From contig NC_011901.1 of assembly GCF_000021985.1 (NCBI RefSeq), positions 1,984,001-2,048,000 of the forward strand: a DNA stretch of 64,000 nt, written 5' to 3'. Position 1 is the first letter of the stretch. Every line of letters starts with the position of its first letter. The DNA is from Thioalkalivibrio sulfidiphilus HL-EbGr7. GTDB taxonomy: Bacteria; Pseudomonadota; Gammaproteobacteria; Ectothiorhodospirales; Ectothiorhodospiraceae. The position numbers and the translations under genes were made by a program. This document shows, in pieces, positions 4,354 through 47,663 of the stretch. The notes under the pieces are model-generated. The model ran no database searches. It was not told the origin of the DNA and saw only the letters and a program-made list of their open reading frames with translations.

Positions 4354-4406
4354 TGGTGCCCGGAGCCGGAATCGAACCGGCACGGCAAAAGCCGGGGGAT
4401 TTTAAG
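4354..4406 (-). pseudogene. leuZ: 3' half of host tRNA-Leu(UAA), leuZ, cut by the ICE
   Basis: Read on the minus strand this is the anticodon loop through the CCA end of a tRNA-Leu: CTTAAAATCCCC, a variable arm, a T arm (GCCGGTTCGATTCCGGC) and acceptor TCCGGGCACCA. The D arm and the 5' acceptor strand are missing; ICE sequence starts at 4407 instead. The missing 5' half is at 47623-47663, whose GCCCGGA pairs exactly with this TCCGGGC. Joining the two across the 9-bp core gives an 85-nt tRNA-Leu(UAA) with a GGGGA/TCCCC anticodon stem. Confidence 0.92.
4398..4406. repeat. attL core (GATTTTAAG)
   Basis: This is the left copy of the 9-bp direct repeat bounding the ICE. It is identical to 47623-47631 and matches positions 32-40 of the host tRNA-Leu, so the crossover falls in the anticodon loop and the first base of the stem. 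Outside the 9 bp the two junctions diverge at once. Confidence 0.85.
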
Positions 4407-4537
4407 CCAGAGCATGGCTTCCGCACCGGGGCACCGCTGGGGTTGGATGGGGCTTGCTGTAGCAGGTTTTCCAGCTAACCAATGCCTTCCATCATATCCC
4501 GGTGCGCGATGCAAACCGCCCCGGTTCCCTTTCGCTT

Positions 4538-4556
4538 GGCTCCTAGCCGGCCCCTG
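4538..4556. repeat. Left-end copy of 19-bp end repeat (putative integrase arm site)
   Basis: GGCTCCTAGCCGGCCCCTG matches GGCGCCTAGCTGGCCCCTG at 47502-47520 in 17 of 19 positions, in direct orientation. The left copy is about 130 bases inside the core and the right copy about 100. It overlaps a GGCCCC/GGGGCC hairpin (4549-4567) just upstream of int. Position near both ends suggests an integrase or excisionase binding site. Confidence 0.5.
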
Positions 4557-4583
4557 GAATCGGGGCCTTTCAGGAGCACCCTC

Positions 4584-5789
4584 ATGGCGAAAATCAAACT
4601 CACCAAGTCCGTCGTTGACACGGCACAGGCGCGAACCTGCGACGTGGAACTCCGGGATACGCTCGTTCCAGGCTTCTTGTGCAAGGTTACACCAACCGGG
4701 CGCAAGGTATTCATGCTTCAGTACCGCACGAACTCCGGTGTTCGGCGCAAGCCGTCACTCGGCCAGTTCGGCGAGCTGACGGTCGAACAGGCCCGGTCGC
4801 TGGCGCAAGACTGGCTGGCCGAAGTCCGGCGCGGCGGCGACCCCGGACTGGACAAGGCGGATGCCCGCAAGGCCCCAACGGTCAAGGAGCTGTGCGGCCG
4901 GTTCATGGATGACCACTCCAAGCCGCACAACAAGCCGAGCACCCAGGCCGGCTACCAGTACCAGATCGACACCTTCGTCATTCCGGCCTTCGGCACCAAG
5001 AAGGTTCACGAAGTCACGCGCAACGACATTACCGCGCTGATGAAGCGCATGGAGAAGTCGCCCACCCAGGCCAATCGGGTGTTGTCGCTCGTGCGCAAGA
5101 TGTTCAATCTGGCCGAACTGTGGGGCTATCGGCCGGACGGCTCCAACCCGTGCCGCCATGTGCCCAAGTACCCGGAGAAAGGCTCGACCCGGCTCATTAC
5201 CGATGACCAGATGGTCAAGCTGTTCGCCTATCTGGACAAGGCCGAGGCCGAGAACTTGGAGCATCCCATCCTCTTGCTGGCCGTCCGGCTGCAATTCGAG
5301 TTCGCGGCGCGCATGTCGGAAATCCTGCTGTTGCAGTGGGATTGGCTCGACCTGCCCAATGGCCGGGTGGTCTGGCCGGACAGCAAGACCGGCGATATGT
5401 CCAAGCCCTTGAGCGAGGAAGCCAAGCGGCGGCTGACGAGCGCCCCCCGCTATGGCGATTCGCCCTATGTCTGCCCGGCGATCATCGACCACCGCCAGCC
5501 CCTCAGTCCCCACACCTACTATCAGGGGTGGCGGCGCATCCTCAGCAATGCCGGCGTGCCGAAGGTCGGCACCCACGGCATTCGCCATCGCTCCGCGACC
5601 GACATTGCCAATTCGGGCGTCCCGGTCAAGGTCGGTATGGCGCTGACGGCGCACAAGACCGTGGCGATGTTCATGCGCTACGTCCACACCGAGGACGATC
5701 CTGTGCGCCAAGCCGCCGAACTGGTGGCGACCCGTCGGCAGACCATCACCGGAAAGCGGCAACCGCAGCCGCAGGAGGCCACGGCATGA
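4584..5789 (+). CDS. int: Tyrosine recombinase integrase of the ICE
   Basis: This 401-aa protein catalyses insertion and excision of the element at the tRNA-Leu core. The start is the ATG giving MAKIKLTKSVVD, preceded by CAGGAGCACC; an upstream in-frame ATG lacks support. It has an N-terminal DUF4102-like arm-binding domain (about 1-85), a SAM-like core-binding domain (about 95-185) and a catalytic domain. The full catalytic set is visible: R243 (AARMSE), H331/R334 (HGIRHR), H357 (TAHK) and Tyr366 (MRYVH). Its stop overlaps the next gene by ATGA, so both are co-translated. It sits 180 bases from attL, as expected. Confidence 0.93.
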   Translation: MAKIKLTKSVVDTAQARTCDVELRDTLVPGFLCKVTPTGRKVFMLQYRTNSGVRRKPSLGQFGELTVEQARSLAQDWLAEVRRGGDPGLDKADARKAPTVKELCGRFMDDHSKPHNKPSTQAGYQYQIDTFVIPAFGTKKVHEVTRNDITALMKRMEKSPTQANRVLSLVRKMFNLAELWGYRPDGSNPCRHVPKYPEKGSTRLITDDQMVKLFAYLDKAEAENLEHPILLLAVRLQFEFAARMSEILLLQWDWLDLPNGRVVWPDSKTGDMSKPLSEEAKRRLTSAPRYGDSPYVCPAIIDHRQPLSPHTYYQGWRRILSNAGVPKVGTHGIRHRSATDIANSGVPVKVGMALTAHKTVAMFMRYVHTEDDPVRQAAELVATRRQTITGKRQPQPQEATA

Positions 5790-6949
5790 GCGCCCGGACG
5801 CCCAAAGCCGCCAAAGACGCCGCCCTGCCTGCCGGCTACGCCGGCATCCACGGCGGCATCGTGGAACTGCTGGACGCCGCGCGCCAGGCGGCGGCGCGCA
5901 GCGTCAATGCGCTGATGACGGCCAGCTATTGGGAAATCGGCCGCCGCATCGTGGAGGCCGAGCAACAGGGCAAGCGGCGCGCGGGCTATGGCGAGCAGTT
6001 GATTGCCCGGCTGTCCGCCGACCTGACCGCGCGCTTCGGGCGCGGTTTCAGCCCGGACAATCTGGAGAACATGCGGCGGTTCTTCGCCGCCTACCCCCGG
6101 CCCATGATTTCCGAGGCACTGTCTCGGAAATCAGGCGACGAACCGCCTGCCGAGATTTCCGAGACAGTGTCTCGGAAATTCGCCCTGGCCGAGCTGGCGC
6201 AGGTGTTCCCGCTGCCGTGGTCGGCCTACGTGCGGCTGCTGGCGGTCAAGGACGACCACGCCCGCCGGTTCTACGAGGCCGAGGCGTTGCGCGGCGGCTG
6301 GAGCGTGCGCCAGCTTGACCGGCAGATCGGCAGCCAGTTCTACGAGCGCACGGCCTTGTCCAAGGACAAGGCGGCGATGCTGGTCAAGGGCGCAGCGCCG
6401 AGGCCCGAGGATGCCGTCAGGCCCGACGACGCCATCAAAGACCCCTACGTGCTGGAGTTCCTGAACCTCAAGGACGAGTATTCCGAATCCGATCTGGAGG
6501 CCGCGCTGATCCAGCGGCTGGAGGATTTTCTGCTGGAGCTGGGCGAAGGGTTCACCTTCGTCGGGCGGCAGCGGCGCTTGCGCATCGACCAGACCTGGTA
6601 TCGGGTGGATCTTCTGTTTTTCCACCGGCGGCTGCGCTGCCTGGTCATCATCGACTTGAAGCTGGGCAGCCTGTCCCATGCCGACGTGGGCCAGATGCTC
6701 ATGTATTGCAACTACGCCAAGGAGCATTGGGCCTATCCCGATGAAAACCCGCCCGTGGGGTTGATCCTGTGCGCCGACAAGGGCCATGCCCTGGCGCGGT
6801 ATGCCTTGGAAGGTTTGCCGTCAAAGGTGATGGCGGCGAACTACCGTACCGTGCTGCCGGATGCCGAGCTGTTGCAGAAGGAATTGGAGACTACGCGGCG
6901 CTTGCTGGAATCGCGCACGTCGAAGCAGCCCAAGAAACTCCCGCAGTAA
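5786..6949 (+). CDS. DUF1016 (YhcG-type) PDDEXK nuclease-family protein
   Basis: The protein has 387 aa, and its ATG overlaps the integrase stop. An N-terminal helical DUF1016 domain (about 15-190, with MTASYWEIGRRIVE) is followed by a PDDEXK nuclease-like domain. In that domain WYRVDLLFFHRRLRCLVIID gives the first acid and IDLKLG the D-x-K part. The DNA-binding substrate and role of this family on mobile elements are not settled; a link to recombination or defence is an inference. Its linker carries two 25-bp palindromes (6107-6179). Coupling to int suggests a role in integration or stabilisation. Confidence 0.85.
   Translation: MSARTPKAAKDAALPAGYAGIHGGIVELLDAARQAAARSVNALMTASYWEIGRRIVEAEQQGKRRAGYGEQLIARLSADLTARFGRGFSPDNLENMRRFFAAYPRPMISEALSRKSGDEPPAEISETVSRKFALAELAQVFPLPWSAYVRLLAVKDDHARRFYEAEALRGGWSVRQLDRQIGSQFYERTALSKDKAAMLVKGAAPRPEDAVRPDDAIKDPYVLEFLNLKDEYSESDLEAALIQRLEDFLLELGEGFTFVGRQRRLRIDQTWYRVDLLFFHRRLRCLVIIDLKLGSLSHADVGQMLMYCNYAKEHWAYPDENPPVGLILCADKGHALARYALEGLPSKVMAANYRTVLPDAELLQKELETTRRLLESRTSKQPKKLPQ
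6107..6179. repeat. Two in-frame 25-bp palindromes inside the DUF1016 gene
   Basis: The first copy (6107-6131) and the second (6155-6179) share the frame ATTTCCGAG...CTCGGAAAT. The second is a perfect palindrome around a central base; the first differs by a few central bases. They encode ISEALSRK and ISETVSRK, so the protein contains a duplicated octapeptide in the linker between its two domains. Confidence 0.85.
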
Positions 6950-6981
6950 CCGGGCGTCCCGGCGTTCCGCCGTCGGGTTCG

Positions 6982-7074
6982 CGGGCTGCGCCCCACGCCT
7001 CGTTCCGAGTCGCGGCCATTCGGCCTTGACCCCTGACGCCTTCGGCCCTCGCGGGCCTGCGCGCTCCGCTTGCC
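6982..7074 (+). repeat. Dispersed ICE intergenic repeat, copy A
   Basis: This stretch starts CGGGCTGCGCCCC, continues through GCGGCCATTCGGC and ACGCCTTCG, and ends CTGCGCGCTCCGCTTGCC. It is closely similar over about 92 bases to 14579-14670 and in its second half to 10311-10359. It lies in the 325-base gap between the DUF1016 and RadC genes, which otherwise shows no convincing coding region. Confidence 0.7.
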
Positions 7075-7274
7075 CAAAAGCCGAGGGTGTGCAGTGGGCG
7101 GTGTGTAGGCGGTCTTGCTGCTCCCTTCACCGTATCACGGCGTCCTCGCCGTCAAGGGCGGCGCGCGCCATGCGCGCTTGCGTCCTGGTGGCCGTCTGCG
7201 ACCCCTGACTGCTTGCGCTGCGCCGTGCTGAACACGGTTCCGGGCAATTCCGCCCGAGCAACCGGAGCACGATC

Positions 7275-7781
7275 ATGTCGCAATTCTCCCTCTCTCACGA
7301 TACCCCGCTGATGGTGCGCGATGGCCGTGGCCGCTATCGGCCGGCGGACGCCGACCAGATTCTGGAAGCTGCGCGCCAGGTCATCGAACAGAAGATGCAG
7401 CGCGGTGCATCGTTCAGTTCGCCGGAGGCGGTCAAGGACTACCTGCGCGCCAAGCTGGCCGGCTTCGAGCACGAAGTCTTTGCCGTCCTGTTTCTCGATA
7501 CGCGCCATCGGTTGATCGACTACGTGGAGATGTTCCACGGCACGATCGACGCCGCCGAGGTGCATCCGCGCGAAGTGGTGAAGCAGGCGCTGCGGCTCAA
7601 TGCGGCGGCGGTCATCGTTTCGCACAACCATCCGAGTGGGAACCCCGAGCCGAGCGCGGCCGACAGATCGATGACCGCGCAGCTTCGGCAGGCGCTGGCG
7701 CTGGTGGACGTTCGCACGCTGGATCACGTCATCGTTGCGGGGACTCGCACCACGTCATTCGCCGAGCGCGGCCTGATTTGA
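7275..7781 (+). CDS. radC: RadC-like JAB/MPN domain protein
   Basis: This 168-aa protein is a standard part of Tn4371-type elements. It has the JAB1/MPN metal-binding signature HNHPSGNPEPSAAD (HxHx7D with an upstream glutamate in VEMFHG), typical of RadC-family proteins but without the helix-hairpin-helix N-terminus of chromosomal RadC. Cellular RadC's role in repair is disputed, so function is not assigned here. The start ATG follows an AACCGGAGCACG ribosome site. An intrinsic terminator follows the stop by 5 bases. Confidence 0.88.
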   Translation: MSQFSLSHDTPLMVRDGRGRYRPADADQILEAARQVIEQKMQRGASFSSPEAVKDYLRAKLAGFEHEVFAVLFLDTRHRLIDYVEMFHGTIDAAEVHPREVVKQALRLNAAAVIVSHNHPSGNPEPSAADRSMTAQLRQALALVDVRTLDHVIVAGTRTTSFAERGLI

Positions 7782-7785
7782 CGAG

Positions 7786-7806
7786 GGGGGCTTCGGCCCC
7801 CTTTTT
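7786..7806 (+). terminator. Intrinsic terminator after radC
   Basis: A GGGGGC stem with a TTCG tetraloop and GCCCCC is followed by five T residues. It ends the integrase-side leftward module before the oppositely oriented RloC-like gene. Confidence 0.88.
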
Positions 7807-7849
7807 GCTGCGCCTGGTGGCGCAACTCCGGCCCTCGCGGGCCTGGCGC

Positions 7850-10186
7850 TCAGGCAGTCGCAACCTGAATCATCTCGTCGTAATGTTTCTTGTCCACTTC
7901 CTCCAGCCACTGAAAGATGTGCCCGATGACGCTGTGACTTTCGCCTGCCAAGTTTTCTGCCGATTCCTCGGTTATTTCAATTACATCGCTATGCGAATAC
8001 TTGTTGATAAAGCGGTATATCTTCTCTTTGAGTTCCGGTGTCGTGATGGTGCAGTCTTTCAGGCCAACATCCATTAATTGACTAATGTCGCTTCTCCGCC
8101 TTGGATACTTGAAGGTAAAGAACGATTCAACTAGCTTGCGTGCGAGGTTCGCCGTCAAGAATGCTTCGTCTCGGTTAAGAGTCGTATGCGCCCTATATTC
8201 ATAGAGCTTCTTGAAAATATAGTGGTACTCCGAACCGTAATTCTTCAGAGAGTCGTCGGCGTCAACAAGCAGCGAGTGGCGGGGTGAACCAGGAGGCGCA
8301 TCCAGTCGATAGAAGAAGCAATTCTCAGCTTTTCCTTTGGCGATCCTGTTCCTGTTCGTTCCAGTGAACCAGTCTCTCACCAGCTTGAAGTAAGTGAAGT
8401 TGTGGGTGAGTACAAAAAGTTGCTTGGCTTCAGTGCATTGAGTTCTCAGGAAAGAATAGGCATGAAACAGGTGATTTGAATCAAAGCTTGAGACCGGATC
8501 ATCAACGACGACAATTGTGTCCTTGATGTTGTTTCCATTTTCTTTGAGCTTCGTGATGAAGTAGACAAATGCAATCGCAGTCTTCTCACCTTCGCTCAAA
8601 TTCCCATCATGCTCACCCACACCGTTTCTGATGATCTCATAGCCTTTTTTATTTTGATTAAAGCTCAAGCAAAGCTCAGAACGACCGATGAAACGATGCA
8701 GGATGTCATTGAACTCTTTCGCCCCCACCGTCTCATTTGAGAGCAGCGCCTCTATTGCTCCGACCTCTTGACCAAGTTTTTCAATTTCCTTGTAGTCATT
8801 CTTTGCTTCAGCCTCAAGGTCATTGCATTTCTTCTCACTTCCAGCATAGTCAAATTCTTGCACCTCAGCCGCAGCAAAGTGAAGTTCCAGTGCCACCTTG
8901 CTTTTTGATGTCTCAGATTTGAAGTTTGAAGTCTTATTGTTATGCTTTCCGACGAGCGCAACGATCGACTTTAGGATCTCATTGAAATTCGTGACATCCT
9001 CTTCAACCACATCCGAAATCTGAATGTCTGTCTTTGCAGGATCTGTAATTTTGGCTTTCAGAGCTTGCCGCCATCCGTCTATTTGCTGGTTGATCTTCTC
9101 AGCAGCAGATGTGTATTCCTTCTGGAATTTATCTGCGTCAGCCGATAGCTCTTTATAAAACTCCGTCGCTGCGGGCAACTGATTGGCTGGAGCACCTTGA
9201 GATTCAATCCAAGTCGCGGCGCTCTGAAGCCGGTTTTGAAAATCCGTGAACTCTTTGCTGAAGTGAGCGGCAAGTGCCTCAGCACGAAGCTGGGTGAATG
9301 GGGAGCCGCAGAACTCGCAGGATTGCGAATCATGGTTTTTATGAATTTCCAAGCCGGCTTGAACCCATTCACGAATGTCCGGGTTATCAGTCAGCCGCCG
9401 GATAGCTTGATTGACTGCTGTAGTTCCAATCAAGTCTCTGATGCGACCTGCCGCCTTCTTAAAGTAGTCCGGCTCAATGGCCGTTGAGGCGAAGGTAATA
9501 CTTGGAAGTTGATCTGGTTTGGCGGCATTCGTGAGGTCGATGACCTTCTCATCTGGAAGAACCGAGCCAGGATTAACAATGGCCTTGCCATTATTCTGAA
9601 TGAAATTGGAGAGCTTTCGGCGGTCGTAGTTCAAGTAGTAGCTATCGCTCGTATCAATCGCCTGAAGTCCTAGCTTCATTTTCTTGGCAGCATTGGTCAG
9701 AAATTTATCCAATGCTTCACGCTGCTTCTTGATGTCGCTTTGCTTTTCGTCGTGAGCTTTCTTCTTCGATTGAAGATCGCCTTTTAGCTTCTCCAGTTTT
9801 TGCAAGTCATCAATCTTCTCTTTCGCAATGAGAAGGATGCTTTTTACGGATTTGTCCCAATCAATATTCTCATGCACAAAGCGTTGATTGAAGACATGGA
9901 TATTTAATTGGGATGAAGGGAGTGTGGCTTCCGTGATCGTTGAGCCGTCTTCCAAAATAACTGAAAACTGACCCGCGCTGAAGCGAGGAACCATCGAGCG
10001 AAGCTCAAAGCAAGAGAATAGATTCGATAGGGTTGACTTGCCTGTTCCGTTCCAGCCATAGACAAGGTTGTACCGGCCGAACTTCTGGATCTTCGTTCCA
10101 TTGAAGTCGCTGAAGATGCCGAACTGCTTGAGACGGTTAATGCAGACGATCACTTTTAGCCCCCCGTGTTCTTGCTTTAGCAACAT
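7850..10186 (-). CDS. RloC/PrrC-like AAA_13 ATPase, putative anticodon nuclease
   Basis: With the start at MLLKQEHGGLKVIVC the protein is 778 aa. It has an ABC-type split ATPase: Walker A GWNGTGKST (44-52), a long coiled-coil middle, signature LSEGEK (530-535) and Walker B VVVDDP (about 559-564). A CEFCG motif (Cys290, Cys293) within the coiled coil resembles the zinc hook of RloC. The C-terminus has R683-x3-E687 and H732 (NKYSHSD), an arrangement like the Arg-Glu-His triad of the PrrC/RloC anticodon nucleases. The gene is clearly AT-rich against its neighbours and on the opposite strand, so it is probably a recent defence insertion. Plain AAA_13 proteins of unknown function share much of this, so nuclease activity is inferred. 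Confidence 0.65.
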   Translation of the reverse strand: MLLKQEHGGLKVIVCINRLKQFGIFSDFNGTKIQKFGRYNLVYGWNGTGKSTLSNLFSCFELRSMVPRFSAGQFSVILEDGSTITEATLPSSQLNIHVFNQRFVHENIDWDKSVKSILLIAKEKIDDLQKLEKLKGDLQSKKKAHDEKQSDIKKQREALDKFLTNAAKKMKLGLQAIDTSDSYYLNYDRRKLSNFIQNNGKAIVNPGSVLPDEKVIDLTNAAKPDQLPSITFASTAIEPDYFKKAAGRIRDLIGTTAVNQAIRRLTDNPDIREWVQAGLEIHKNHDSQSCEFCGSPFTQLRAEALAAHFSKEFTDFQNRLQSAATWIESQGAPANQLPAATEFYKELSADADKFQKEYTSAAEKINQQIDGWRQALKAKITDPAKTDIQISDVVEEDVTNFNEILKSIVALVGKHNNKTSNFKSETSKSKVALELHFAAAEVQEFDYAGSEKKCNDLEAEAKNDYKEIEKLGQEVGAIEALLSNETVGAKEFNDILHRFIGRSELCLSFNQNKKGYEIIRNGVGEHDGNLSEGEKTAIAFVYFITKLKENGNNIKDTIVVVDDPVSSFDSNHLFHAYSFLRTQCTEAKQLFVLTHNFTYFKLVRDWFTGTNRNRIAKGKAENCFFYRLDAPPGSPRHSLLVDADDSLKNYGSEYHYIFKKLYEYRAHTTLNRDEAFLTANLARKLVESFFTFKYPRRRSDISQLMDVGLKDCTITTPELKEKIYRFINKYSHSDVIEITEESAENLAGESHSVIGHIFQWLEEVDKKHYDEMIQVATA

Positions 10187-23654: not shown

Positions 23655-24389
23655 TCAAGCCGTTTGCCGTTCTTTCGCGATGAATCTCAGTCCGACCCCT
23701 GGTTCGGTCACGATGTAGCGGGGAGCTGAGGCATCGTCCCCAAGCTTGTTGCGCAACTTGCCCACAAGAATGCGCAAGTAGTGGGCATCCTCCTCGTGCG
23801 TCGGTCCCCATACCTCCCGCAAGATTTGCGTTTGGGTAATCAGCCGTCCAGGTTGACGGGCCAACAGGGACAGCAGAGAAAACTCTTTACGGCTCAGTGT
23901 GACGACTTGGCCGTGGACGGTCACTTCCCGTTGTGCCAGATCAATTCTGACAACCCCGTCGTCATAAACTGGATCTTCCTCCGCGCCCGATCCTAACGTT
24001 CGCAGGAATGCGCGGATACGCGCCATCAGTTCCTCGACACCAAACGGTTTGGTCACGTAGTCGTTGGCACCCGCATCCAGCAAGGCGACCTTCTCCTCTT
24101 CCCCGGAGCGCACTGTAAGCACAATGACTGGCACGCGCGACCATCGCCGAAGCTCCTTGAGCACTTCCTTCCCGTCCTTGTCGGGCAATCCCAGATCGAG
24201 AACGACGAGATCGGCCCCCTTGCTAGCCAGCAGCGTCAGTCCTTCCCGGCCCGTTCCCGCCAGCAGAGTCGCGTATCCCTGCGAGCGCAGGCTGATGTCG
24301 ATGAACTTGCGGATCTGCGGTTCGTCATCGACGACGAGAATTCTGGCGGCCGGAGCGCCCGAATTCGACTCACTAGGACGTCCCATCAT
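23655..24389 (-). CDS. kdpE: KdpE response regulator
   Basis: This 244-aa OmpR/PhoB-type regulator activates kdp transcription when phosphorylated by KdpD. The receiver domain (about 15-130) has the acidic pair VVDDEPQIRK, the phosphoacceptor in VVLDLGLPD, and K in YVTKPF. The winged-helix output domain (about 145-240) has SRKEFSLLSLLARQPGRLIT and HYLRILVGKLRNKLGD. The ATG lies inside the kdpD end (17-base overlap), so translation is coupled. Probable targets are the 11-bp tandem repeats at 32906-33072. Confidence 0.95.
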   Translation of the reverse strand: MMGRPSESNSGAPAARILVVDDEPQIRKFIDISLRSQGYATLLAGTGREGLTLLASKGADLVVLDLGLPDKDGKEVLKELRRWSRVPVIVLTVRSGEEEKVALLDAGANDYVTKPFGVEELMARIRAFLRTLGSGAEEDPVYDDGVVRIDLAQREVTVHGQVVTLSRKEFSLLSLLARQPGRLITQTQILREVWGPTHEEDAHYLRILVGKLRNKLGDDASAPRYIVTEPGVGLRFIAKERQTA

Positions 24390-27114
24390 GTTCTTTCGCC
24401 TCCTGATTGGCGTACCCGCCCCAAGGCAAGGTCAAACGGATGGTAGTTCCCTTGCCTTCTGGTCCCGGCAGCGCTTGGACACTGCCCATATGGGCACCCA
24501 CGATACCTTGGACGATCGTCAGTCCCAGGCCGGTTCCCTGCTTGCCCCGGTCGCCACGCTCCACGCTGTAGAACATATCGAAGATGCGGCGTCGTTCGTC
24601 TTCTGGAATGCCTGGCCCACGGTCCGAAATGTCGATTCGTAATTGATCGTCCTCGGTCCGTCGAATCTGCACCCGGATGGGCACACCCGGAGGGGAGAAC
24701 TTCGCCGCGTTCTCCATCACATTAAACAGAGCCTGCTCGATGAGCGCGGGGTGGACATGGATCGGAGGCAGGTCGGGGGGAATATCGTGTTCGATGCGTA
24801 CATCGGGCTCGTACCGTTGCAAACGCCTGGACGCTGAACCCACCAACTCGTCGATGCCGATCCAGTCGCGTGTCAGCGTCAGTCCCTGCTGCCCGAGCCG
24901 GGTCATGTCGAGCAGGTTCTGGATGTACCGATCCAGGCGCTCGCCTTCCACATGGATGGTCTCCAGCAGGCTTTTCTGATCCTCCGGCCCCATATCCTTG
25001 GCGTAGCGAGCCAAGCTGTCCGCTGCTCCGATCATCGACGACAGGGGCGAACGCAGGTCGTGCGACACCGACGACAGCAGCGCGGACCGCAGGCGCTCCG
25101 TTTCTCCGGTGACGCGCGCTTCCTCCAGTTCCGACACCAGCCGCGTGCGCTGGGCGGCCTGGCCGATGTCCTCCACCATGCTTTCCGCCAGGCGGCGCTG
25201 CTCGAACGAAAGACGCCCCATGCCCGACGGGAACCTCAAGCCGGCCACGCCGAGCGTATTCTTGTCCGAGTGCACCGGCAGAAACAACCAAGACGAATGG
25301 GTCAGGGTGTCCGTGTAGTGCCCGCTCGCCTGCCCGTGCTGCTGCGTCCAGTCGGCCGCCATCAGATCCTTCTCGGTCAGATGATTCGCGGCAGTGGTAG
25401 GACCGGCCTCGCCATTGATGCGTATCCATGCCTCGGCGTGCAGGGTCGATTGCAGAACCGATGAGCCTGATGCGATGACCTGCCCGAGATCGGCTGCCTT
25501 GGCAAGATGGCGTCCCAGGTTCTGCATGGCCGTCGCGTGTGTGTTCGCCGCTCGCAACGCCACGACTTGCATGCGCAGTTGTGAAGCTAGTCGTCCGGCA
25601 ATCAGAGCCGCCGCCAAGAACAGCAACACAGTGGCCACACCACGGTGAGCACTGATAAGGAAGGTGTAGCGCGGTTCGATGAAGAAGAAGTTGTATGCCA
25701 CGAAACACAGCCCGGCGGTAATGACGGCCGAGAGCATGCGGGTTCGTGAGGCGACGAGCATGACCGCCACGAGAAAGATCAGGGACAGATCCTGCAAGCC
25801 CAGCGTGCGCTCGGCCAAGGCCGCCGCGCCGACGGCGCCGACGCTGGCCAGCAGGATCAGCACGACCTCCCGTCCCGTGAGGCGACCGCTGGCAAGACCC
25901 TGCAATTCCATCGCCCGCTGCCGGGCCTGCGGCGTGCTGACGATCGTCAGCTCGTATCGTGCGCCGCGCTGCAACAGTTGCTGCGTCAGCGTGCGATTGA
26001 AGATGCGGACGATGGGGCGCTCGCGCGTGCGGCCGATCACGATGGATCGTGCGCCGCGCGCCTCGGCGGCGTCGAGCAGTGCCTGGGTGACGTCGGTGTT
26101 GTGCAGCACTTCCGTCTCGCCACCCAGATTGCGCGCCAGCGCGAATGCCTTGTCGATCTCGATCAAGCGCTGCTGCTCCGCACGCGCAACCATGTTGCGC
26201 GTGGGGGCCGTCCGGTAAAGGTCGTCAGTGTGCAAGGCGGCATCGGCCGAGCGCCCGGTCTCCACCGTGACCACCGACCAAGGAGCGCCCCGGCGCTCGG
26301 CGATTCGAGCCCCCGCTCTTACGAGGTATTCCGACTGCCCCCGGCCGTCAATGGCGATCAGCACATGGCGCTGGATGGAAATGCCTTCCAGGCCGCGCGC
26401 CGCGCGCGTCTCGCGCAAGTCGGCATCGACGTGATCGGCCACGGTTTGCATCGCCAGCTCGCGCAGAGCGGTGAGATTCGACGGCGAGAAGAACGCCTGC
26501 AGCGCCTGGGCGGCCTGCTCGGGCAAATACACCTTGCCATCGTTCAGGCGTTCGATCAGTTCTCGCGCAGGCAAATCCACCAGGCGGATGTCACGCAGGC
26601 GCTCGAAAACGGCGTCGGGAACAGTCTCGCTCACCCGGATACCAGTGATCTGGTGCACCACGTCGTTCAGACTTTCCAGATGCTGGATATTGACCGTGGT
26701 GTAAACGTCGATACCAGCGTTGAGCAATTCCTCCACATCCTGCCAGCGCCGCTCATGACGGCTTCCGGGAGCGTTGCGATGGGCCAGCTCGTCGACCAGG
26801 GCGATGGCCGGCTTGCGCCCCAGCAAACCATCCAGGTCCATCTCCTCCAGTTGCCGTCCCTGGTATTCGACCTTCTTGCGAGGCAACAGCGGCAGACCCT
26901 CGACCATGGTCTGGGTCTCGCTGCGGCCATGTGTCTCGACGATGCCAATGACGACATCCACCCCTTGGCGGTGGAGTTCGCGCGCGCGCGCCAGCATCGC
27001 GTAGGTCTTGCCGACACCGGGGGCGGCGCCCAGGAACACCGTCAGACGTCCTGCGGTCTGGCGCTTGATTTCCCCCAGCAAGGCGTCGGCTTGTCCCGTA
27101 TGTTCGGTTCCCAT
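24373..27114 (-). CDS. kdpD: KdpD potassium/turgor sensor histidine kinase
   Basis: This 913-aa inner-membrane sensor has the full family architecture: an N-terminal KdpD domain with a Walker-like GAAPGVGKTYAM (about 29-40), a universal stress protein-like domain, four membrane helices (about 400-500), a GAF-like region, and HisKA plus HATPase domains. The phosphoacceptor box is SSVSHDLRSPLSSM; GPGIPEDERRRIFDMF and GTGLGLTIVQGIVGAHMG are the nucleotide-binding boxes. It pairs with kdpE by overlap. A PtsN-like protein is encoded directly upstream, fitting the known control of KdpD by dephosphorylated EIIA(Ntr). Confidence 0.95.
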   Translation of the reverse strand: MGTEHTGQADALLGEIKRQTAGRLTVFLGAAPGVGKTYAMLARARELHRQGVDVVIGIVETHGRSETQTMVEGLPLLPRKKVEYQGRQLEEMDLDGLLGRKPAIALVDELAHRNAPGSRHERRWQDVEELLNAGIDVYTTVNIQHLESLNDVVHQITGIRVSETVPDAVFERLRDIRLVDLPARELIERLNDGKVYLPEQAAQALQAFFSPSNLTALRELAMQTVADHVDADLRETRAARGLEGISIQRHVLIAIDGRGQSEYLVRAGARIAERRGAPWSVVTVETGRSADAALHTDDLYRTAPTRNMVARAEQQRLIEIDKAFALARNLGGETEVLHNTDVTQALLDAAEARGARSIVIGRTRERPIVRIFNRTLTQQLLQRGARYELTIVSTPQARQRAMELQGLASGRLTGREVVLILLASVGAVGAAALAERTLGLQDLSLIFLVAVMLVASRTRMLSAVITAGLCFVAYNFFFIEPRYTFLISAHRGVATVLLFLAAALIAGRLASQLRMQVVALRAANTHATAMQNLGRHLAKAADLGQVIASGSSVLQSTLHAEAWIRINGEAGPTTAANHLTEKDLMAADWTQQHGQASGHYTDTLTHSSWLFLPVHSDKNTLGVAGLRFPSGMGRLSFEQRRLAESMVEDIGQAAQRTRLVSELEEARVTGETERLRSALLSSVSHDLRSPLSSMIGAADSLARYAKDMGPEDQKSLLETIHVEGERLDRYIQNLLDMTRLGQQGLTLTRDWIGIDELVGSASRRLQRYEPDVRIEHDIPPDLPPIHVHPALIEQALFNVMENAAKFSPPGVPIRVQIRRTEDDQLRIDISDRGPGIPEDERRRIFDMFYSVERGDRGKQGTGLGLTIVQGIVGAHMGSVQALPGPEGKGTTIRLTLPWGGYANQEAKEHDGTS

Positions 27115-27206
27115 GGCAGACCTATCCTCAAAGTATTTTCGTTGTCTGCATATCGTCTTCGGCCACCCTTGGTTCTCGCCAAGCTATGGATGAGGCGTGG
27201 CGCCGT

Positions 27207-27662
27207 CTAAGAAGTCCATTCATCAAATAACGCCTTAATTTCAACCGGGTTATGACGGGCTTGCAAGGCCGCTCGAAATCCACTATCGGAGAACAATGCA
27301 GCCGCATGGGCCAAAAGCTCAAGATGCGCCTCGGTTGCTGGGCTGGGAACCAGCAGCACCAGGGCATCGGATACTTGCCCGATGTCAGGAGCATCGAACT
27401 CCAGCCCTGGCACGAGACGCACGTACAGAGCGCGAATGCGTTTCAGAATGTTCACCCTGGCGTGGGGAATGGCGACGCCGAGGCCCAATGCAGTCGATCC
27501 CGCCAGTTCCCGCCGCATCAGGGCGGAAGCGACAGCATCCGCTGGCAAACCGCCGATGCGCTCGGTGTGAAGGCCGATGGCCTGGAACAACTGTCGCTTG
27601 TTCGAAACGTTCAGACCGAGGAGAACGTCCTCGGCCTGAAGGTAGATGCCCAGCACAGTCAT
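27207..27662 (-). CDS. PtsN-like (EIIA-Ntr) PTS regulator inside the kdp operon
   Basis: This 151-aa PTS_EIIA type-2 domain protein has the phosphoacceptor histidine in LGVAIPHARVN and the arginine-rich NVSNKRQLFQAIG helix near the start. In Escherichia coli the dephosphorylated PtsN protein binds KdpD and raises its kinase activity; that is known for the family. Here the gene lies between kdpC (4-base overlap) and kdpD, so a dedicated, mobile copy that tunes the ICE sensor is a reasonable inference. Host ptsN would normally sit beside rpoN, which is not in this window. Confidence 0.85.
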   Translation of the reverse strand: MTVLGIYLQAEDVLLGLNVSNKRQLFQAIGLHTERIGGLPADAVASALMRRELAGSTALGLGVAIPHARVNILKRIRALYVRLVPGLEFDAPDIGQVSDALVLLVPSPATEAHLELLAHAAALFSDSGFRAALQARHNPVEIKALFDEWTS

Positions 27663-28315
27663 TGCGCAGTCGCTGGCGCCTTCGGGGCGGGCGAAGCGAC
27701 AGCATCCAGCGCCAGATTCAGCTCAAGCACATTCACGCGAGGCTGGCCCAGTAAACCGAGTTGCTTGCCCTCCGTATGCTGGGCAACTAAGCCTTCGATG
27801 ACATCGCGTGAGATACCGCGCGCATGTGCTACGCGGTCAATCTGAATGGCGGCAGCTTGCGAACTGATGTGCGGGTCGATGCCGCCGCCGGATTGCGTGA
27901 CCAGATCGCTGGGTATGGCGGAAGGATCGACACCATACCTTTGCGCCAGGGCGGCTCGCGTTTCATCGACACGTTTGCGCAAGTCTGGATTGGTACGGGC
28001 CTGGTTGCTCCCTGCCACCGCCATCACATCGTAGTTGGCCGCAGAGGGGCGTGACTGGAAGTAGCGATCGTCCGAGAACGGCTGCGCCACCAGTGAGGAG
28101 CCGAGGACCTTGCCATCGCGCTCGATTAGGCTGCCATTGGCAGTGCTCGGGAACAGCGCCTGGCCGAGCCCGACTCCCGCCAGCGGATACAGCAGACCGA
28201 AACCGACCAGCGAAATGATCGCCAGGCCGATGGAGCCGCGGAGCAGGCCCTTGTCGGAGATGGCCGGGGACACATTGCCCGGCGTGCGGGGAGTTGTAGT
28301 TGCGTTATGAGACAT
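27659..28315 (-). CDS. kdpC: KdpC subunit of the K+-transporting ATPase
   Basis: This 218-aa single-span membrane subunit helps KdpB bind ATP and stabilises the KdpFABC complex. One N-terminal membrane helix (about 25-48, LLRGSIGLAIISLVGFGLLY) is followed by a periplasmic part with the conserved AQPFSDDRYFQSRPSAANYD and GGGIDPHISSQAAAIQIDRV blocks. The C-terminus is slightly longer than usual (APKAPATAQ). It is 10 bases from kdpB and overlaps the ptsN-like gene. Confidence 0.95.
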   Translation of the reverse strand: MSHNATTTPRTPGNVSPAISDKGLLRGSIGLAIISLVGFGLLYPLAGVGLGQALFPSTANGSLIERDGKVLGSSLVAQPFSDDRYFQSRPSAANYDVMAVAGSNQARTNPDLRKRVDETRAALAQRYGVDPSAIPSDLVTQSGGGIDPHISSQAAAIQIDRVAHARGISRDVIEGLVAQHTEGKQLGLLGQPRVNVLELNLALDAVASPAPKAPATAQ

Positions 28316-28325
28316 GATCGAATCC

Positions 28326-30365
28326 TCAGAGAGAGAACATGGCGGAGATCGCGACGTCGATCACCTTGATCGCGATGAAGGGCAGCAGGACGCCACCCAC
28401 GCCATAGATCAGCATGTTGTTGCGCAGCAGTTGCGTCGCGCTCGCGGGCTTGAAGCGCACCCCGCGCAAGGCCAGCGGAATCAGCAGCGGAATGATGATG
28501 GCGTTGAAGATCAGCGCCGACAGCACGGCGCTGTTCGGGCTCGACAGGTTCATGACGTTCAGCGCCGCCATCTGCGGGATTGTTGCGGCGAACAGCGCCG
28601 GCAGGATGGCGAAATACTTGGACACGTCGTTGGCCAGCGAGAAGGTGGTCAGCGCGCCGCGCGTGATGAGCTGCTGTTTGCCGATTTCCACCACGGCGAG
28701 CAGCTTGGCCGGATCGGAGTCGAGATCGACCATGTTGCCGGCCTCCTTGGCCGCCTGTGTGCCCGAGTTCATTGCCAGGCCCACGTCGGCCTGGGCCAGC
28801 GCCGGCGCATCGTTGGTGCCATCGCCCACCATCGCTACCAGGCGACCGCCACTCTGTTCGGCACGGATGCGCGCGAGCTTGTCTTCCGGGCGTGCCTCAG
28901 CGATGTAGTCATCGACACCGGCCTCGGCGGCGATGTTCGCCGCCGTGAGCGGGTTGTCGCCCGTAATCATCACGGTCTTGACGCCCATCTCGCGCAGGCG
29001 CGCGAAACGTTCCTTGATGCCGTGCTTGATCACGTCGGACAGTTCGATGACGCCCAGCACGTGCCGGCCATCGCTGACCACGAGCGGCGTGGCACCCTTG
29101 CGGGCCACATCCGACACACGCGCTTCGAGTTCGGCGGGGATGACGCCGCCCAGCATCTGCACATGCCGCGCGATCGCGTCCATCGCGCCCTTGCGGATGA
29201 CGCGCTCGCCAGGCAGGTCCACGCCCGACATGCGTGACTGCGCGGAGAACGGCACGAAATGCGCGCCTTCGGGTTCATCGAGCTTCTCGTTCTTGCCGCG
29301 TGCGAGCTTGACGATGGACTTGCCTTCCGGCGTCGGGTCCGCCAGCGAAGCCAGCAGCGCCGCCTGACGCAGTTGCGCGGCATCCACTGCGGCCAGCGCG
29401 TGGAACGCGGTGGCCTGCCGGTCGCCGTAGGTGATGGTGCCGGTCTTGTCCAGCAGCAGCACGTCCACGTCGCCCGCGACCTCCACGGCCTTGCCCGACT
29501 TGGCCAGCACGTTGGCCTGTAGCGCGCGGTTCATGCCGGCAATGCCGATGGCCGGCAGCAGCCCGCCGATGGTGGTTGGGATCAGGCACACCAGCAGGGC
29601 GACCAGCAGCACGACGTTGACGTTCACGCCGACGAAGCCACCGATGAAGGGCAGCGTCACGACGACGATCAGGAAGGTCAGCGTCATCACACCGAGCAGG
29701 ATGCCCAGGGCGATTTCGTTGGGCGTCTTCTGCCGGTTGGAGCCTTCCACCAGCGCGATCATGCGGTCGAGGAAGCTGTTGCCCGGCTCGGCGGTGACGC
29801 GCACCACGATGCGGTCGGACAGCACCTTGGTGCCGCCGATCACGCCGGAGCGGTCGGTGCCGGCCTCGCGCAGCACAGGCGCGGACTCGCCGGTCACGGC
29901 GGCCTCGTTGATCGTCGCCAGACCTTCGACAATCTCGCCGTCGGCAGGCACCAACTGGCCTTCTTCGATCATAACATGATCGCCGGGGCGCAGCTCGGCG
30001 GCCGGCACCGTCTTCTCGCCGCCGGCGGTGTCCAGCCGCCGGGCCATCAAATCCTTGCGGGCTCGGCGCAGCGACGCCGCCTGTCCGCGTCCGCGGGATT
30101 CGGCCACGGCTTCGGCGAAGTTGCCGAACAGCACGGTAATCAGCAGGATCACGGTTACGGCCCAGCCGAAACCGGGTTGCGCCCAACCCGCGAGGGTAGC
30201 AACCGCCGTTACCAGCGTACCGAGCCAGACCACGGCCATCACCGGGTTCTTGATGATGTGCTGCGGCGCCAGCTTGATGAAGGAGTTGACCAGCGCAGGC
30301 GCGAAGCCGCGCTCATCCAGGCGCGAGCGGCGGCCCGCGTGTTCTTTCGAGGTTGTATGGTTCAT
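28326..30365 (-). CDS. kdpB: KdpB catalytic P-type ATPase subunit
   Basis: This 679-aa P1-type ATPase energises potassium uptake. The actuator TGES motif lies in [10 protein letters not shown], the phosphorylated aspartate in [13 protein letters not shown], and the hinge region in [20 protein letters not shown]. The seven-helix core is complete, with [15 protein letters not shown] as a potassium-pathway segment. It follows kdpA after 10 bases. All catalytic motifs are intact, so the transporter should be active. Confidence 0.96.
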
Positions 30366-30375
30366 GATGTTTTCC

Positions 30376-32085
30376 TCAACGCGCGACCAGGCTCAGATGA
30401 TCGGCAACGGGGCCTAGCACCAGCACGGGCATGAACTGAAGCAGTGTCAGGATGACGATCACCGCGATCAGCGTGAGCGCAAAAGTGGGGGTTTCGATGT
30501 GCAGGCTTCCCGTGCTTTCCGGGGCTTGGCGTTTGCGCGCGAGCATGGCTGCGATCACCAGCGGAATGATGAGGGCCGGATAGCGACCCGCGGCGAGCAC
30601 GAAGCTGGCGGTGACGTTCCACCAGACGGTGGCATCGCCCAACCCCTCGAAGCCCGAGCCGTTGTTGGCGAAGGACGACGTGTATTCGTAGAAGACCTGG
30701 CTGATGGCATGGAAGCCGGGGTTCGAGCTCCCCGTCAGGCTCGGCACGGCCAGCGTGATGGCGGTCAGGCCCAGCAGGATCAGCGGTTGCAGCAGCACGA
30801 GCACTGCGAGCAGGCGGACCTCGGGCGCTTCGATCTTGCGTCCGAAAAGTTCCGGCGTGCGCCCCGTCATCAGGCCGGCCAGGAACACGCCCAGCAGGAG
30901 ATAGGTCAGGAACTGCTGCAAGCCGCTGCCGATGCCGCCCCAGATGGCGTTGATCAGCATGTCGCTGATCGTGACCAGGCCGGTCAGAGGCGCCAGCGAG
31001 TCGTGCATGGCGTTGACCGAGCCGTTGGATGTCTGTGTCGTCAATGCGGCCCACAACGCGGAAGGCTCGGCGCCGAAGCGGACTTCCTTGCCTTCCATCA
31101 GCGCGATGTCCTGCGAGGTCGAGGAGAACCCTTCCGACCAGATGGCGAATCCCGCCGACACGACGGACATGGTCAACATCGTGCCGCACACCAATCCGGC
31201 AAACTTTCGTCGTCCGGTCAGTCCACCGATCATGAACACCACCGCGACTGGGACCAAAATAAGTGCCAAGGTTTCAAGCAGATTCGACAGCGGCGTGGGG
31301 TTCTCCAGCGGCACCGAGCTGTTGGGGCCGTACCAGCCACCGCCATTGGTGCCGAGTTGCTTGATGGCGACCATAGGAGACACCGGACCCAGCGGGATCT
31401 TCTGTTCCTTCATTTCTACCGTCGTATCCACGGGAGCGACCACGGGGCCGCCATCCAGCGTGGCCGGCACGCCCTGGCTGGTCAGCAGCACCGACCACAG
31501 CAGGCACAGCGGTAGCATGAAGCGCAGCGTGGGGCGGATCACATCGGCCCAGTAGTTGCCGACATCCACCGGGGCCTGCTCCTGCCCATCGGCCTTGCGC
31601 TCCTGCGCATTGCGTCCGCCGAAGAACCCGCGCAGCGTCGCTACGACCAGCGCCAGACCCATCATGGGCGTGATGACCTGCAAGGTCACGATGCCCGTCA
31701 TGTGGGCCAGGTACGAGAGCTGTGCCTGCCCGGAGTAGTGCTGCTGGTTGGTGTTGGTCAGGAAGGACACCATCGTGTGCAGCGCCAGGTCCCAGCTCAT
31801 GTTGGGCGCGCCGTTGGGGTTGAGCGGTAGCCACGCCTGGGTCATCAGGATCAGCCACACGATGACCGCCAGCACTAGGTTGCTCAGCAGGAACGCGCCG
31901 GCGTACCCGCGCCAGCTCATGCCGCGCTCGGGGTTGGTACCGATCAGCGCATACAGGGGCCGCTCCAGCCACAGAAACAGCCTGTCGCCGCGCATCGGCG
32001 CGCCGCGCATGACCGCGGCCAGATAGCGACCGAGCGGCCATCCGAGACCGATCGCCAGGGCAAATACGAGAAGAAACTCAGTCAT
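30376..32085 (-). CDS. kdpA: KdpA potassium-channel-like subunit
   Basis: This 569-aa, roughly ten-helix inner-membrane subunit selects and binds K+. Repeated filter-like loops are visible: [32 protein letters not shown] and [13 protein letters not shown]. The length matches the family. No kdpF reading frame is found in the 54 bases between this gene and torF, so the small stabilising peptide is missing, very divergent or elsewhere. Confidence 0.96.
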
Positions 32086-47143: not shown

Positions 47144-47461
47144 TGGTGCCCGAGGCCGGAATCGAACCGGCACGCCTTTCGGCGAGGGATTTTCTTACCA
47201 CTTCGACTTTCGCCGCCGCCTTGCTCAACGCAGGGCGTTCGTGGTCTGGAGCACGCCTTCACCATAGCCTTGCGGCCGTAGGTGCCCGCCGTCTGCTCTC
47301 TACACCTTCCCAAGCTGTGGCTTGGGCTTGGCTCGGCGTTGGCTCGGGTGCAAAAGCATCCAGGGCGTTCGCCGACTTTGACGGGCTTCACTTCGGGCGT
47401 TTCCCCCCGAAGGCTCAAATTGTTCAAGTCCCTTGTGTCTACCGATTTCACCACTCGGGCG
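47144..47461 (-). tRNA. tRNA-Leu(UAA) with a group I intron, carried by the ICE
   Basis: The 5' exon is 47461-47427 (35 nt, GCCCGAGTGGTGAAATCGGT then AGACACAAGGGACTT) and the 3' exon 47193-47144 (50 nt, AAAATCCCTCGCCG to CTCGGGCACCA). Joined, they give an 85-nt tRNA with a 7-bp acceptor stem (GCCCGAG/CTCGGGC), an anticodon stem AGGGA/TCCCT, loop CTTAAAA (anticodon UAA), a long variable arm and a normal T arm (GCCGGTTCGATTCCGGC); the CCA is encoded. A 233-nt intron sits between U34 and A35. It differs from the host leuZ in many positions, so it is not a duplicate. It lies on the same strand as leuZ, 161 bases beyond the broken end, so it may be transcribed by the host tRNA promoter. Confidence 0.88.
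47194..47426 (-). ncRNA. Group I self-splicing intron in tRNA-Leu(UAA)
   Basis: The 233-nt intron follows U34 and ends in G (TGGTAAG), as group I introns do. P1 is clear: exon CUU plus intron GAA pairs with UUUGAG, giving a U-G wobble at the 5' splice site and a CAA loop. P2 is CTTCGGG with CCCGAAG. Further in, GCCAACGCCGAGCCAAGCC resembles the P4/P6 (Q) region and AAGGTGTAGAGAGCAGACGG the P7 (R) region of plastid/cyanobacterial trnL introns, which have CAATCCTGAGCCAAATC and AGGTGCAGAGACTCAATGG. No protein is encoded. The insertion point is identical to that of those trnL introns. Splicing itself is not shown. Confidence 0.85.
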
Positions 47462-47622: not shown

Positions 47623-47631
47623 GATTTTAAG
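47623..47631. repeat. attR core (GATTTTAAG)
   Basis: This is the right copy of the 9-bp core, at the break in the host tRNA-Leu. Below it, ICE sequence continues as ACAAAACA instead of the expected CCGGGG of the tRNA 3' half. Confidence 0.85.
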
Positions 47632-47663
47632 TCCCCTGCGTCTACCAGTTCCGCCATCCGGGC
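47623..47663 (-). pseudogene. leuZ: 5' half of host tRNA-Leu(UAA), leuZ
   Basis: On the minus strand this reads GCCCGGATGGCGGAACTGGT then AGACGCAGGGGACTTAAAATC: acceptor 5' strand, D arm, anticodon stem and loop with anticodon UAA. It then breaks off. The rest is at 4354-4406, 43 kb away. It keeps its place after tRNA-Gly and tRNA-Cys, as glyW-cysT-leuZ of Escherichia coli. As it stands it cannot form a tRNA, so the cell needs another source of tRNA-Leu(UAA). Confidence 0.92.

What the first reader, a model, noticed from the sequence alone, without database searches (positions are those of the whole stretch)
7850..10186. RloC-like putative anticodon nuclease on a tRNA-targeting ICE
ATPase motifs, a CxxC zinc-hook-like motif in the coiled coil and C-terminal R683-x3-E687...H732 match the layout of RloC, which cuts tRNA anticodon loops during phage infection. 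The gene is AT-rich and reversed, so it was acquired separately. An element that both replaces an anticodon loop by a foreign tRNA and may encode an anticodon nuclease invites testing whether the foreign tRNA resists cleavage.
Basis: partly seen in the sequence, partly recalled or inferred. Interest (0 to 1): 0.62.

Follow-up and report, generated by a model that had tools for sequence, protein, structure and literature searches.

The report
RloC-type RNase on a mobile element
A mobile DNA element carries a gene that looks like a known kind of bacterial self-poisoning enzyme, RloC, which cuts transfer RNAs when DNA is broken and may stop phages; it is an unstudied member of that family, and its meeting with the element's own spare transfer RNA looks like chance.

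Summary
The gene is real and the RloC reading holds. It matches Pfam AAA_13 end to end, has a Rad50-like ATPase head, a CxxC between helices, and the RloC triad R-x3-E-x44-H. In 81 aligned proteins CxxC is invariant, and R, H and E are the most conserved residues of the C-terminal domain. Comparison with PrrC proteins pairs all three. That domain, modelled alone, resembles HEPN RNases. Cleavage is untested: a new member of a known kind.

It is cargo of a Tn4371-family ICE (apparently ICE-Tn4371-6071 of Thioalkalivibrio sulfidiphilus HL-EbGr7). 88 plasmid records hold a 90-95% identical protein, at the same slot in the two opened. The ICE splits the host's tRNA-Leu(UAA) in its anticodon loop and brings an intact intron-containing one. 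The proposed nuclease/resistant-tRNA pair is not supported: the loop sequences are identical, among the loci examined the combination occurs only here and in a near-identical ICE of Stenotrophomonas acidaminiphila, and the native RloC studied in Acinetobacter cuts tRNA-Glu and tRNA-Gln.

The parts
7850..10153 (-).
10031..10057 (-). Walker A, GWNGTGKST, residues 33-41
   Evidence: sequence
9308..9319 (-). CxxC (CEFC), residues 279-282, between helices 258-273 and 288-295 of the model
   Evidence: 81/81 conserved; model
8582..8599 (-). ABC signature LSEGEK, residues 519-524
   Evidence: sequence
8480..8512 (-). Walker B / D-loop VVVDDPVSSFD, residues 548-558
   Evidence: D551 and D552 81/81
8402..8404 (-). 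switch histidine H584
   Evidence: 80/81
7877..8233 (-). HEPN-like nuclease domain, about residues 641-759 as aligned to HEPN structures
8126..8140 (-). R672-x3-E676 of the RloC/PrrC triad
7991..7993 (-). H721 of the triad, preceded by S720
4398..4406 (-). att core CTTAAAATC, integrase-side ICE end
47623..47631 (-). att core CTTAAAATC, trb-side ICE end
4354..4406 (-). 3' half of the split host tRNA-Leu(UAA)
   Evidence: same arrangement in L076
47623..47663 (-). 5' half of the split host tRNA-Leu(UAA)
   Evidence: same arrangement in L135
47144..47460 (-). ICE-borne tRNA-Leu(UAA): exons 47426-47460 and 47144-47193, 232-nt group I-type intron 47194-47425
   Evidence: ARAGORN with introns allowed; Rfam Intron_gpI 30.9 bits, below gathering score 50, E 8.6e-6
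4482..5789 (+). tyrosine integrase
   Evidence: PF00589
5789..6949 (+). YhcG-type PDDEXK nuclease
   Evidence: PF06250, PF17761
7275..7781 (+). RadC/JAB protein, left neighbour
   Evidence: PF04002
10701..11525 (+). DUF932 protein, right neighbour
   Evidence: PF06067
34806..46886 (+). conjugation block (TraG-type coupling protein, T2SSE-type ATPase, TrbE-type and TrbI-type proteins among others)

Best explanation
The gene encodes an RloC-type protein: a Rad50-like ABC ATPase with a CxxC-tipped coiled coil, joined to a C-terminal HEPN-type RNase domain. Most likely (inferred from studied RloCs, not shown here) the ATPase keeps the RNase off until it meets broken or linear DNA, such as phage-degraded host DNA. 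It then cuts tRNA anticodon loops at the wobble position and halts translation, stopping a phage or a competing element. It is a stand-alone defence gene carried as cargo in a Tn4371-family ICE. The ICE's own intron-containing tRNA-Leu(UAA) serves integration, replacing the host gene that the ICE splits, and is independent of the nuclease. Shown: architecture, motif conservation, fold similarity, ICE context. Inferred: tRNA target, DNA trigger, anti-phage role.
For: AAA_13 match 723 bits over 1-713/713. PADLOC candidate-defence models PDC-S06 at 582 bits and PrrC at 35 bits over residues 529-761 of the 778-aa form. Triad and CxxC conservation in 81 sequences. R-x3-E-x44-H with Ser before His fits the published definition R-x3-E-x36-52-H, size 658-897 aa (PMC2610378, section 5). 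hhalign of 26 proteins against 5 PrrC proteins: probability 98.5%, E 2.5e-15, with R, E and H paired; C-terminal domain alone 80%, E 1.4e-5. AlphaFold2 head matches Rad50 (5da9, Z 17.8, rmsd 3.5, 251 aligned; a cohesin SMC3 row ties). C-terminal domain alone (pLDDT 84, pTM 0.77): of the nine rows with Z 10.0 to 9.0, seven are titled HEPN (Z 9.6-9.0), 111-117 aligned, rmsd 2.8-3.6. GTG start, as in 13 of 70 RloCs (PMC2610378). ICE slot: 20 of the 22 genome-contig relatives at 80% identity or more have RadC and/or DUF932 in the stretch held.
Against: No activity was tested. Foldseek alone gives no significant match for the C-terminal domain (0 with E <= 0.001; first row titled HEPN E 0.39), and Z under 13 for helical bundles can be a common arrangement (tool note). 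No characterised RloC protein sequence was in hand for direct comparison. Few RloCs have been studied and the family is diverse, so the RNA target may differ. The E-to-H spacing is above 52 in 7 of the 79 rows with both residues (E or D, and H). The classic HEPN R-x4-6-H arginine (here R714) is R in only 53 of 81 rows, K in 17.
Confidence: 0.77

Rival explanations
1. ABC-HEPN RNase of RloC layout that cuts another RNA (mRNA, rRNA, or tRNA outside the anticodon loop).
For: HEPN domains in general include mRNA-cutting RNases (RnlA, LsoA; PMC3710099 passages). The triad fixes an RNase site, not the substrate. Substrates were shown for few RloCs.
Against: PrrC and the two RloCs in the papers seen, with the same triad, cut anticodon loops (PMC2610378, PMC3874168).
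Confidence: 0.15
2. SMC/Rad50-like DNA-handling protein or ATPase sensor of a Lamassu, Septu/retron or PARIS type system that needs a partner effector.
For: PADLOC LmuB hit 1.1e-17 and AriA 8.7e-7; Foldseek rows for Lamassu, PtuAB/retron and AriA.
Against: PDC-S06 scores 582 bits over nearly the whole protein against 62 for LmuB and 27 for AriA, whose best matches stop before the C-terminal domain. The five neighbouring genes scanned are integrase, YhcG-type nuclease, RadC, DUF932 and ParB. The protein has its own conserved nuclease-like domain.
Confidence: 0.05
3. First reader's module: the RloC cuts the host-type tRNA-Leu(UAA) and the ICE's intron-bearing tRNA-Leu resists, so the ICE protects itself.
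For: Both features lie on one ICE; no other intact tRNA-Leu(UAA) was found in the genome (list incomplete, see Tried and rejected); the intron sits between positions 34 and 35, and AbaRloC incises 3' to the wobble base (PMC3874168 section 14).
Against: Identical loop CTTAAAA in split host and ICE tRNAs; the mature tRNA has lost the intron; no association in the other genomes and loci examined; AbaRloC's targets share U at the middle anticodon position, tRNA-Leu(UAA) has A (PMC3874168 section 17).
Confidence: 0.03

Closest known systems
RloC of Geobacillus kaustophilus and Acinetobacter baylyi ADP1 (PMC2610378, PMC3874168)
   Same: Size class, ABC motifs, CxxC insert, R-x3-E-x(n)-H triad (Gka R692/E696/H737, C288/C291), GTG start in some, rarely R-M linked.
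   Different: This one sits on a Tn4371-family ICE and its activity is unknown. Direct sequence identity was not measured because neither protein sequence was in hand.
PrrC
   Same: ABC ATPase plus the same triad; profile match with the triad in register.
   Different: PrrC is 341-416 aa without the CxxC insert and is linked to a type I R-M system (PMC2610378); the window gene is 767 aa with no Hsd gene among the five neighbours scanned.
PADLOC PDC-S06
   Same: Best PADLOC match, 583 bits over nearly the whole protein.
   Different: A candidate-defence label; the library gives no function for it.
ICE-Tn4371-6071 (Thioalkalivibrio sp. HL-EbGR7) and ICEKKS102Tn4677
   Same: Same family; 6071 is listed with a potassium transporter (PMC2789088) and the window ICE carries kdp; ICEKKS102Tn4677 repeats GATTTTAAG are the reverse complement of the core found here (PMC11448139).
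   Different: PMC2789088 lists 42,540 bp and no direct repeats for 6071; here 9-bp repeats span 43.2 kb. The main text of PMC2789088 does not contain RloC, anticodon, tRNA or intron.

Membership tests
RloC | 658-897 aa with ABC ATPase motifs split by a long insert | tested here: met
   767 aa; Walker A, signature, Walker B and switch His conserved; head residues fall at both ends of residues 1-643, matching Rad50 and SMC heads
RloC | CX2C zinc-hook motif between coiled-coil helices | tested here: met
   CEFC 279-282, 81/81 conserved, between helices in the model. Zinc binding and hook function not tested
RloC | R-x3-E-x36-52-H, often Ser before His | tested here: met
   R672-x3-E676-x44-H721 with S720; definition in PMC2610378 section 5; conservation
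RloC | C-terminal domain related to the PrrC nuclease / HEPN fold | tested here: met
   hhalign 98.5% over the C-terminal half, triad paired. Fold: 13 of the first 22 VIA-align rows are titled HEPN or HpeT, Z 9.6-6.8; first row titled as a clearly different protein Z 6.1. Foldseek alone not significant, so the fold part is support, not proof
RloC | tRNA anticodon nuclease activity with wobble-nucleotide excision | not testable with these tools
   needs expression and RNA-end analysis
RloC | activation by linear DNA or double-strand breaks through the ATPase | not testable with these tools
   needs biochemistry
RloC | direct sequence relation to a characterised RloC (Gka or Aba) | not tested
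PrrC | 341-416 aa, no CxxC insert | tested here: not met
   767 aa with CxxC; definition from PMC2610378
PrrC | linked type I R-M genes | tested here: not met
   the five neighbours scanned are int, YhcG-type nuclease, RadC, DUF932, ParB
PrrC | catalytic triad R-x3-E...H | tested here: met
   triad in register
Lamassu / retron-Septu / PARIS | partner effector gene beside the ATPase | tested here: not met
   no such domain among the Pfam hits of the five neighbouring genes scanned; the YhcG-type protein is the only nuclease among them

The most novel reading that the evidence does not exclude
The ICE couples an anticodon nuclease with control of the cell's only tRNA-Leu(UAA): integration splits the host gene, the ICE supplies the sole copy from an intron-split gene whose intron lies at the bond an RloC would cut, and RloC activation toggles decoding of UUA codons during phage infection or ICE transfer.
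Probability: 0.03. Interest if true: 0.85.

Novelty: new member of a known kind. Interest (0 to 1): 0.36.

Why it matters
The RloC papers seen here deal with RloC as a DNA-break-responsive host gene. Here an RloC-type gene is recurrent cargo of Tn4371-family ICEs and occurs on large plasmids of Enterobacterales and Pseudomonas (88 records at 90-95% identity), annotated in the rows listed as 'AAA family ATPase' or 'hypothetical protein' and in E. coli as 'ATP-binding protein'. If it works as an anticodon nuclease, transfer of these elements moves a translation-shut-off defence between genera, and a defined natural ICE from a sulfur-oxidising environmental bacterium becomes a test system.

Tried and rejected
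Association of the nuclease with the ICE tRNA: rejected as a general pattern. Caveats: several relatives' contigs end within 0.5 kb of the integrase (for example L079, L094), so their attachment site cannot be read; only the best candidates of each genome were scored and the list of places was capped.

A second intact tRNA-Leu(UAA) in the host: looked for by pattern (26 places, the nearest match being the split gene itself; one other place with a suggestive loop holds no tRNA), by DNA (the ICE copy and the split 3' half only) and by typing all 42 Rfam tRNA matches with ARAGORN: the Leu genes are CAA, UAG, CAG and GAG, no UAA. The list of 42 holds no tRNA-Ile and no Ala(UGC), so it is incomplete, and 'only copy' stays provisional.

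PDB search by sequence showed no chain named PrrC or RloC (where 60 of 71 were shown). Foldseek with the full-length model mainly tests the ATPase and coiled coil, so the C-terminal domain was modelled alone. NCBIfam gave no family above its cut-off. 4 of 50,697 phage records hold weak relatives. A restriction-gene partner: 18 neighbour proteins around ten non-ICE relatives were scanned; restriction domains were seen beside two (L090 Mrr-type; L109 XhoI with an Eco57I-type methylase), a NERD nuclease-like domain beside L088, no Hsd subunit. The 18 are only part of the ORFs listed, which itself left out ORFs under 120 aa.

Rows dropped: in the 81-row alignment, ORFs under 560 aa and loci without a BLASTP hit were left out (so interrupted copies such as L090 and L099 are not counted); one truncated copy (L092) was kept; 23 of the 80 relatives are 83% or more identical to the window protein, so rows are not independent.

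Papers: PMC2610378 (outline with abstract, section 5, passages), PMC3874168 (abstract, sections 14 and 17), PMC3710099, PMC2789088, PMC11448139, PMC3072093, PMC12322248, PMC11555353, PMC10264068 and PMC9298801 (passages). Others were seen in search listings only. Of 77 papers holding at least two of RloC / Tn4371 / integrative and conjugative / anticodon nuclease, 25 were listed and none of these held both RloC and Tn4371. Searches for the intron-tRNA on ICEs showed no title or abstract start describing it; absence from print is not claimed.

Full report
What is there. Window 7850-10186 on the minus strand is open for 778 codons. Relatives fix the start at residue 12: L007's frame opens at that GTG and L008 has ATG there. 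The likely gene is 7850-10153, 767 aa. Its GC is 46.5% against 65.9% for the rest of the ICE.

What the protein is. It matches Pfam AAA_13 over the whole profile, 723 bits. In PADLOC the candidate-defence models PDC-S06 lead at 582 bits, with PrrC at 35 bits over the C-terminal part. The published RloC definition is R-x3-E-x36-52-H with Ser often before His, a CX2C insert and 658-897 aa (PMC2610378 section 5). The protein has R672-x3-E676-x44-H721 with S720 before the His, and C279-x-x-C282. In a single sequence this could be chance: 1581 of 5000 shuffles of the domain hold the triad pattern, 177 with Ser before His, and 413 of 5000 whole-protein shuffles hold CxxC. Across 81 aligned proteins C279 and C282 are invariant, R672 is 79/81, H721 79/81 and E676 77/81 with three Asp. 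These three are the most conserved residues of the C-terminal domain. Against this: 7 of the 79 rows with E or D and H have a spacing above 52, and R714, which would give the classic HEPN R-x6-H, is Arg in 53 of 81 rows. 23 of the 80 relatives are 83% or more identical to the window protein.

Comparison with PrrC. Five proteins with PADLOC PrrC E-values of 7.2e-99 or better were taken from 17 matching genomes of 185 searched; the HsdS-like look of neighbouring ORFs is my recall from reading, not a test. hhalign of 26 proteins against them gives 98.5%, E 2.5e-15, and pairs R with R, E with E and H with H. With the C-terminal domain alone the score is 80%, E 1.4e-5.

Fold. The full model (pLDDT 84, pTM 0.56) has a Rad50/SMC head: best rows Rad50 5da9 and a cohesin SMC3, both Z 17.8. 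The C-terminal 168 residues modelled alone (48 sequences, pLDDT 84, pTM 0.77) give no significant Foldseek match. In the VIA-align list 13 of the first 22 rows are titled HEPN or HpeT, Z 9.6 to 6.8; the top row (Z 10.0) is titled a probable nucleotidyl transferase, Csm6 and Las1 are also in the 22, and the first title that is clearly another kind of protein has Z 6.1. HEPN is the fold assigned to PrrC and RloC nuclease domains in PMC3710099.

Where it sits. The genome has 3,464,554 bases, the size published for Thioalkalivibrio sulfidiphilus HL-EbGr7 (PMC3072093); the strain name is inferred from this and from the ICE content. The element is a Tn4371-family ICE with integrase, YhcG-type nuclease, RadC, DUF932, ParB, a DUF3363 protein, and TraG-, TrbE- and TrbI-type proteins and a kdp potassium-uptake cluster. 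This fits ICE-Tn4371-6071, listed with a potassium transporter (PMC2789088). The gene lies between radC and DUF932.

Distribution. 170 of 72,556 plasmid records have a match; 88 are 90-95% identical, 1 is 80-90%, 81 are under 60%. In the two close ones I opened, the gene lies in the same order between DUF932 and radC; the other 86 were not opened. A third element, with a 96% identical DUF932, has a metal-sensing repressor and a transporter in that place instead, so the slot is a cargo site. 2 of 5426 E. coli genomes carry it, on plasmids. A genome-contig scan gave 59 loci. Of the 22 at 80% identity or more, 20 have RadC and/or DUF932 in the stretch held, and none of the other 37 does (some stretches are short). 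The plasmid ICE and the window ICE are about 81-85% identical in the longer matching pieces but 72% in the integrase, while the gene is 88% identical at DNA level to the E. coli plasmid copies. The gene has thus travelled with this ICE lineage while integrases changed.

The tRNA side. The 9-bp core CTTAAAATC occurs twice in the window, at 4398-4406 and 47623-47631, spanning 43.2 kb. At the cores lie the two halves of a tRNA-Leu(UAA) cut in its anticodon loop. The ICE carries a complete tRNA-Leu(UAA) with a 232-nt intron between positions 34 and 35 that scores as a group I intron below Rfam's cut-off (30.9 against 50 bits, E 8.6e-6). No other tRNA-Leu(UAA) was found, but the tRNA list lacks Ile and Ala(UGC) and so is incomplete. 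An ICE 99.9% identical over 11.8 kb at one end and 2.3 kb at the other splits the tRNA-Leu(UAA) of Stenotrophomonas acidaminiphila JCM 13310.

Does the tRNA pair with the nuclease? The loop is CTTAAAA in the ICE tRNA and in both host tRNAs read across their halves, so no loop change argues for resistance; phage tRNAs predicted to resist do differ there (PMC10264068). Of 369 genomes in the class, five including this one have a match of 82% or more over most of the intron-tRNA; the other four, and four with weaker long matches, lack the nuclease apart from one 20-bit ATPase hit. The core was found in 1 of 19 nuclease-bearing loci, the Stenotrophomonas copy, though some contigs are too short to tell. 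Native AbaRloC cuts tRNA-Glu and tRNA-Gln, which share a modified U34 and U35 (PMC3874168); tRNA-Leu(UAA) has A35. The pairing is therefore most likely coincidence.

How it likely works. By analogy with the studied RloCs (PMC2610378, PMC3874168): ATPase and CxxC arm hold the RNase off, linear DNA or breaks switch it on, anticodon loops are cut at the wobble position, translation stops. Each of these functional steps is inferred for this protein. Known kind, new member; moderate interest for its spread on mobile elements.

Noticed in passing
window 4354-4406, 47623-47663 and 47144-47460; L076, L135: The ICE integrates in the anticodon loop of the only tRNA-Leu(UAA) detected in the host and supplies its own copy, whose group I-type intron splits the 9-bp att core (CTT / AAAATC). 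The intron may thereby shield the ICE's tRNA gene from its own integrase. Same arrangement in two hosts.
   Followed up: partly
window 4398-4406 and 47623-47631: PMC2789088 lists no direct repeats for the HL-EbGR7 ICE; 9-bp repeats CTTAAAATC are present, the reverse complement of the GATTTTAAG repeats given for ICEKKS102Tn4677 (PMC11448139).
   Followed up: yes
L060-L063, L072-L075 (G538, G154, G696, G003): Close relatives of the intron-bearing tRNA-Leu(UAA) occur in four other genomes of the class; in L072 it lies beside stretches similar to this ICE's integrase-side end and to the region upstream of its DUF932 gene, suggesting other elements that carry it.
   Followed up: partly
L141 (Shewanella putrefaciens pSA70-2), 4995-8088: A 47.5% identical relative is followed by a gene annotated as TIR-domain protein, a possible different defence neighbourhood.
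   Followed up: no
L009, L090, L092, L093, L099 and plasmid record NZ_CP124659.1: Truncated or interrupted copies of the gene exist (in the plasmid record with an ISPa33 transposase annotated under the match), so it seems to be lost at times.
   Followed up: no
window 23655-32085: KdpA- and KdpC-type proteins, an E1-E2 ATPase in the KdpB place, a KdpD-type sensor and a response regulator as ICE cargo, with a PTS EIIA-like protein between the KdpC and KdpD genes.
   Followed up: partly
G000 tRNA list: The 42 tRNA matches found in the host genome include no tRNA-Ile and no tRNA-Ala(UGC), although such tRNAs are expected (recalled) in rRNA operons; probably missed or withheld stretches.
   Followed up: no
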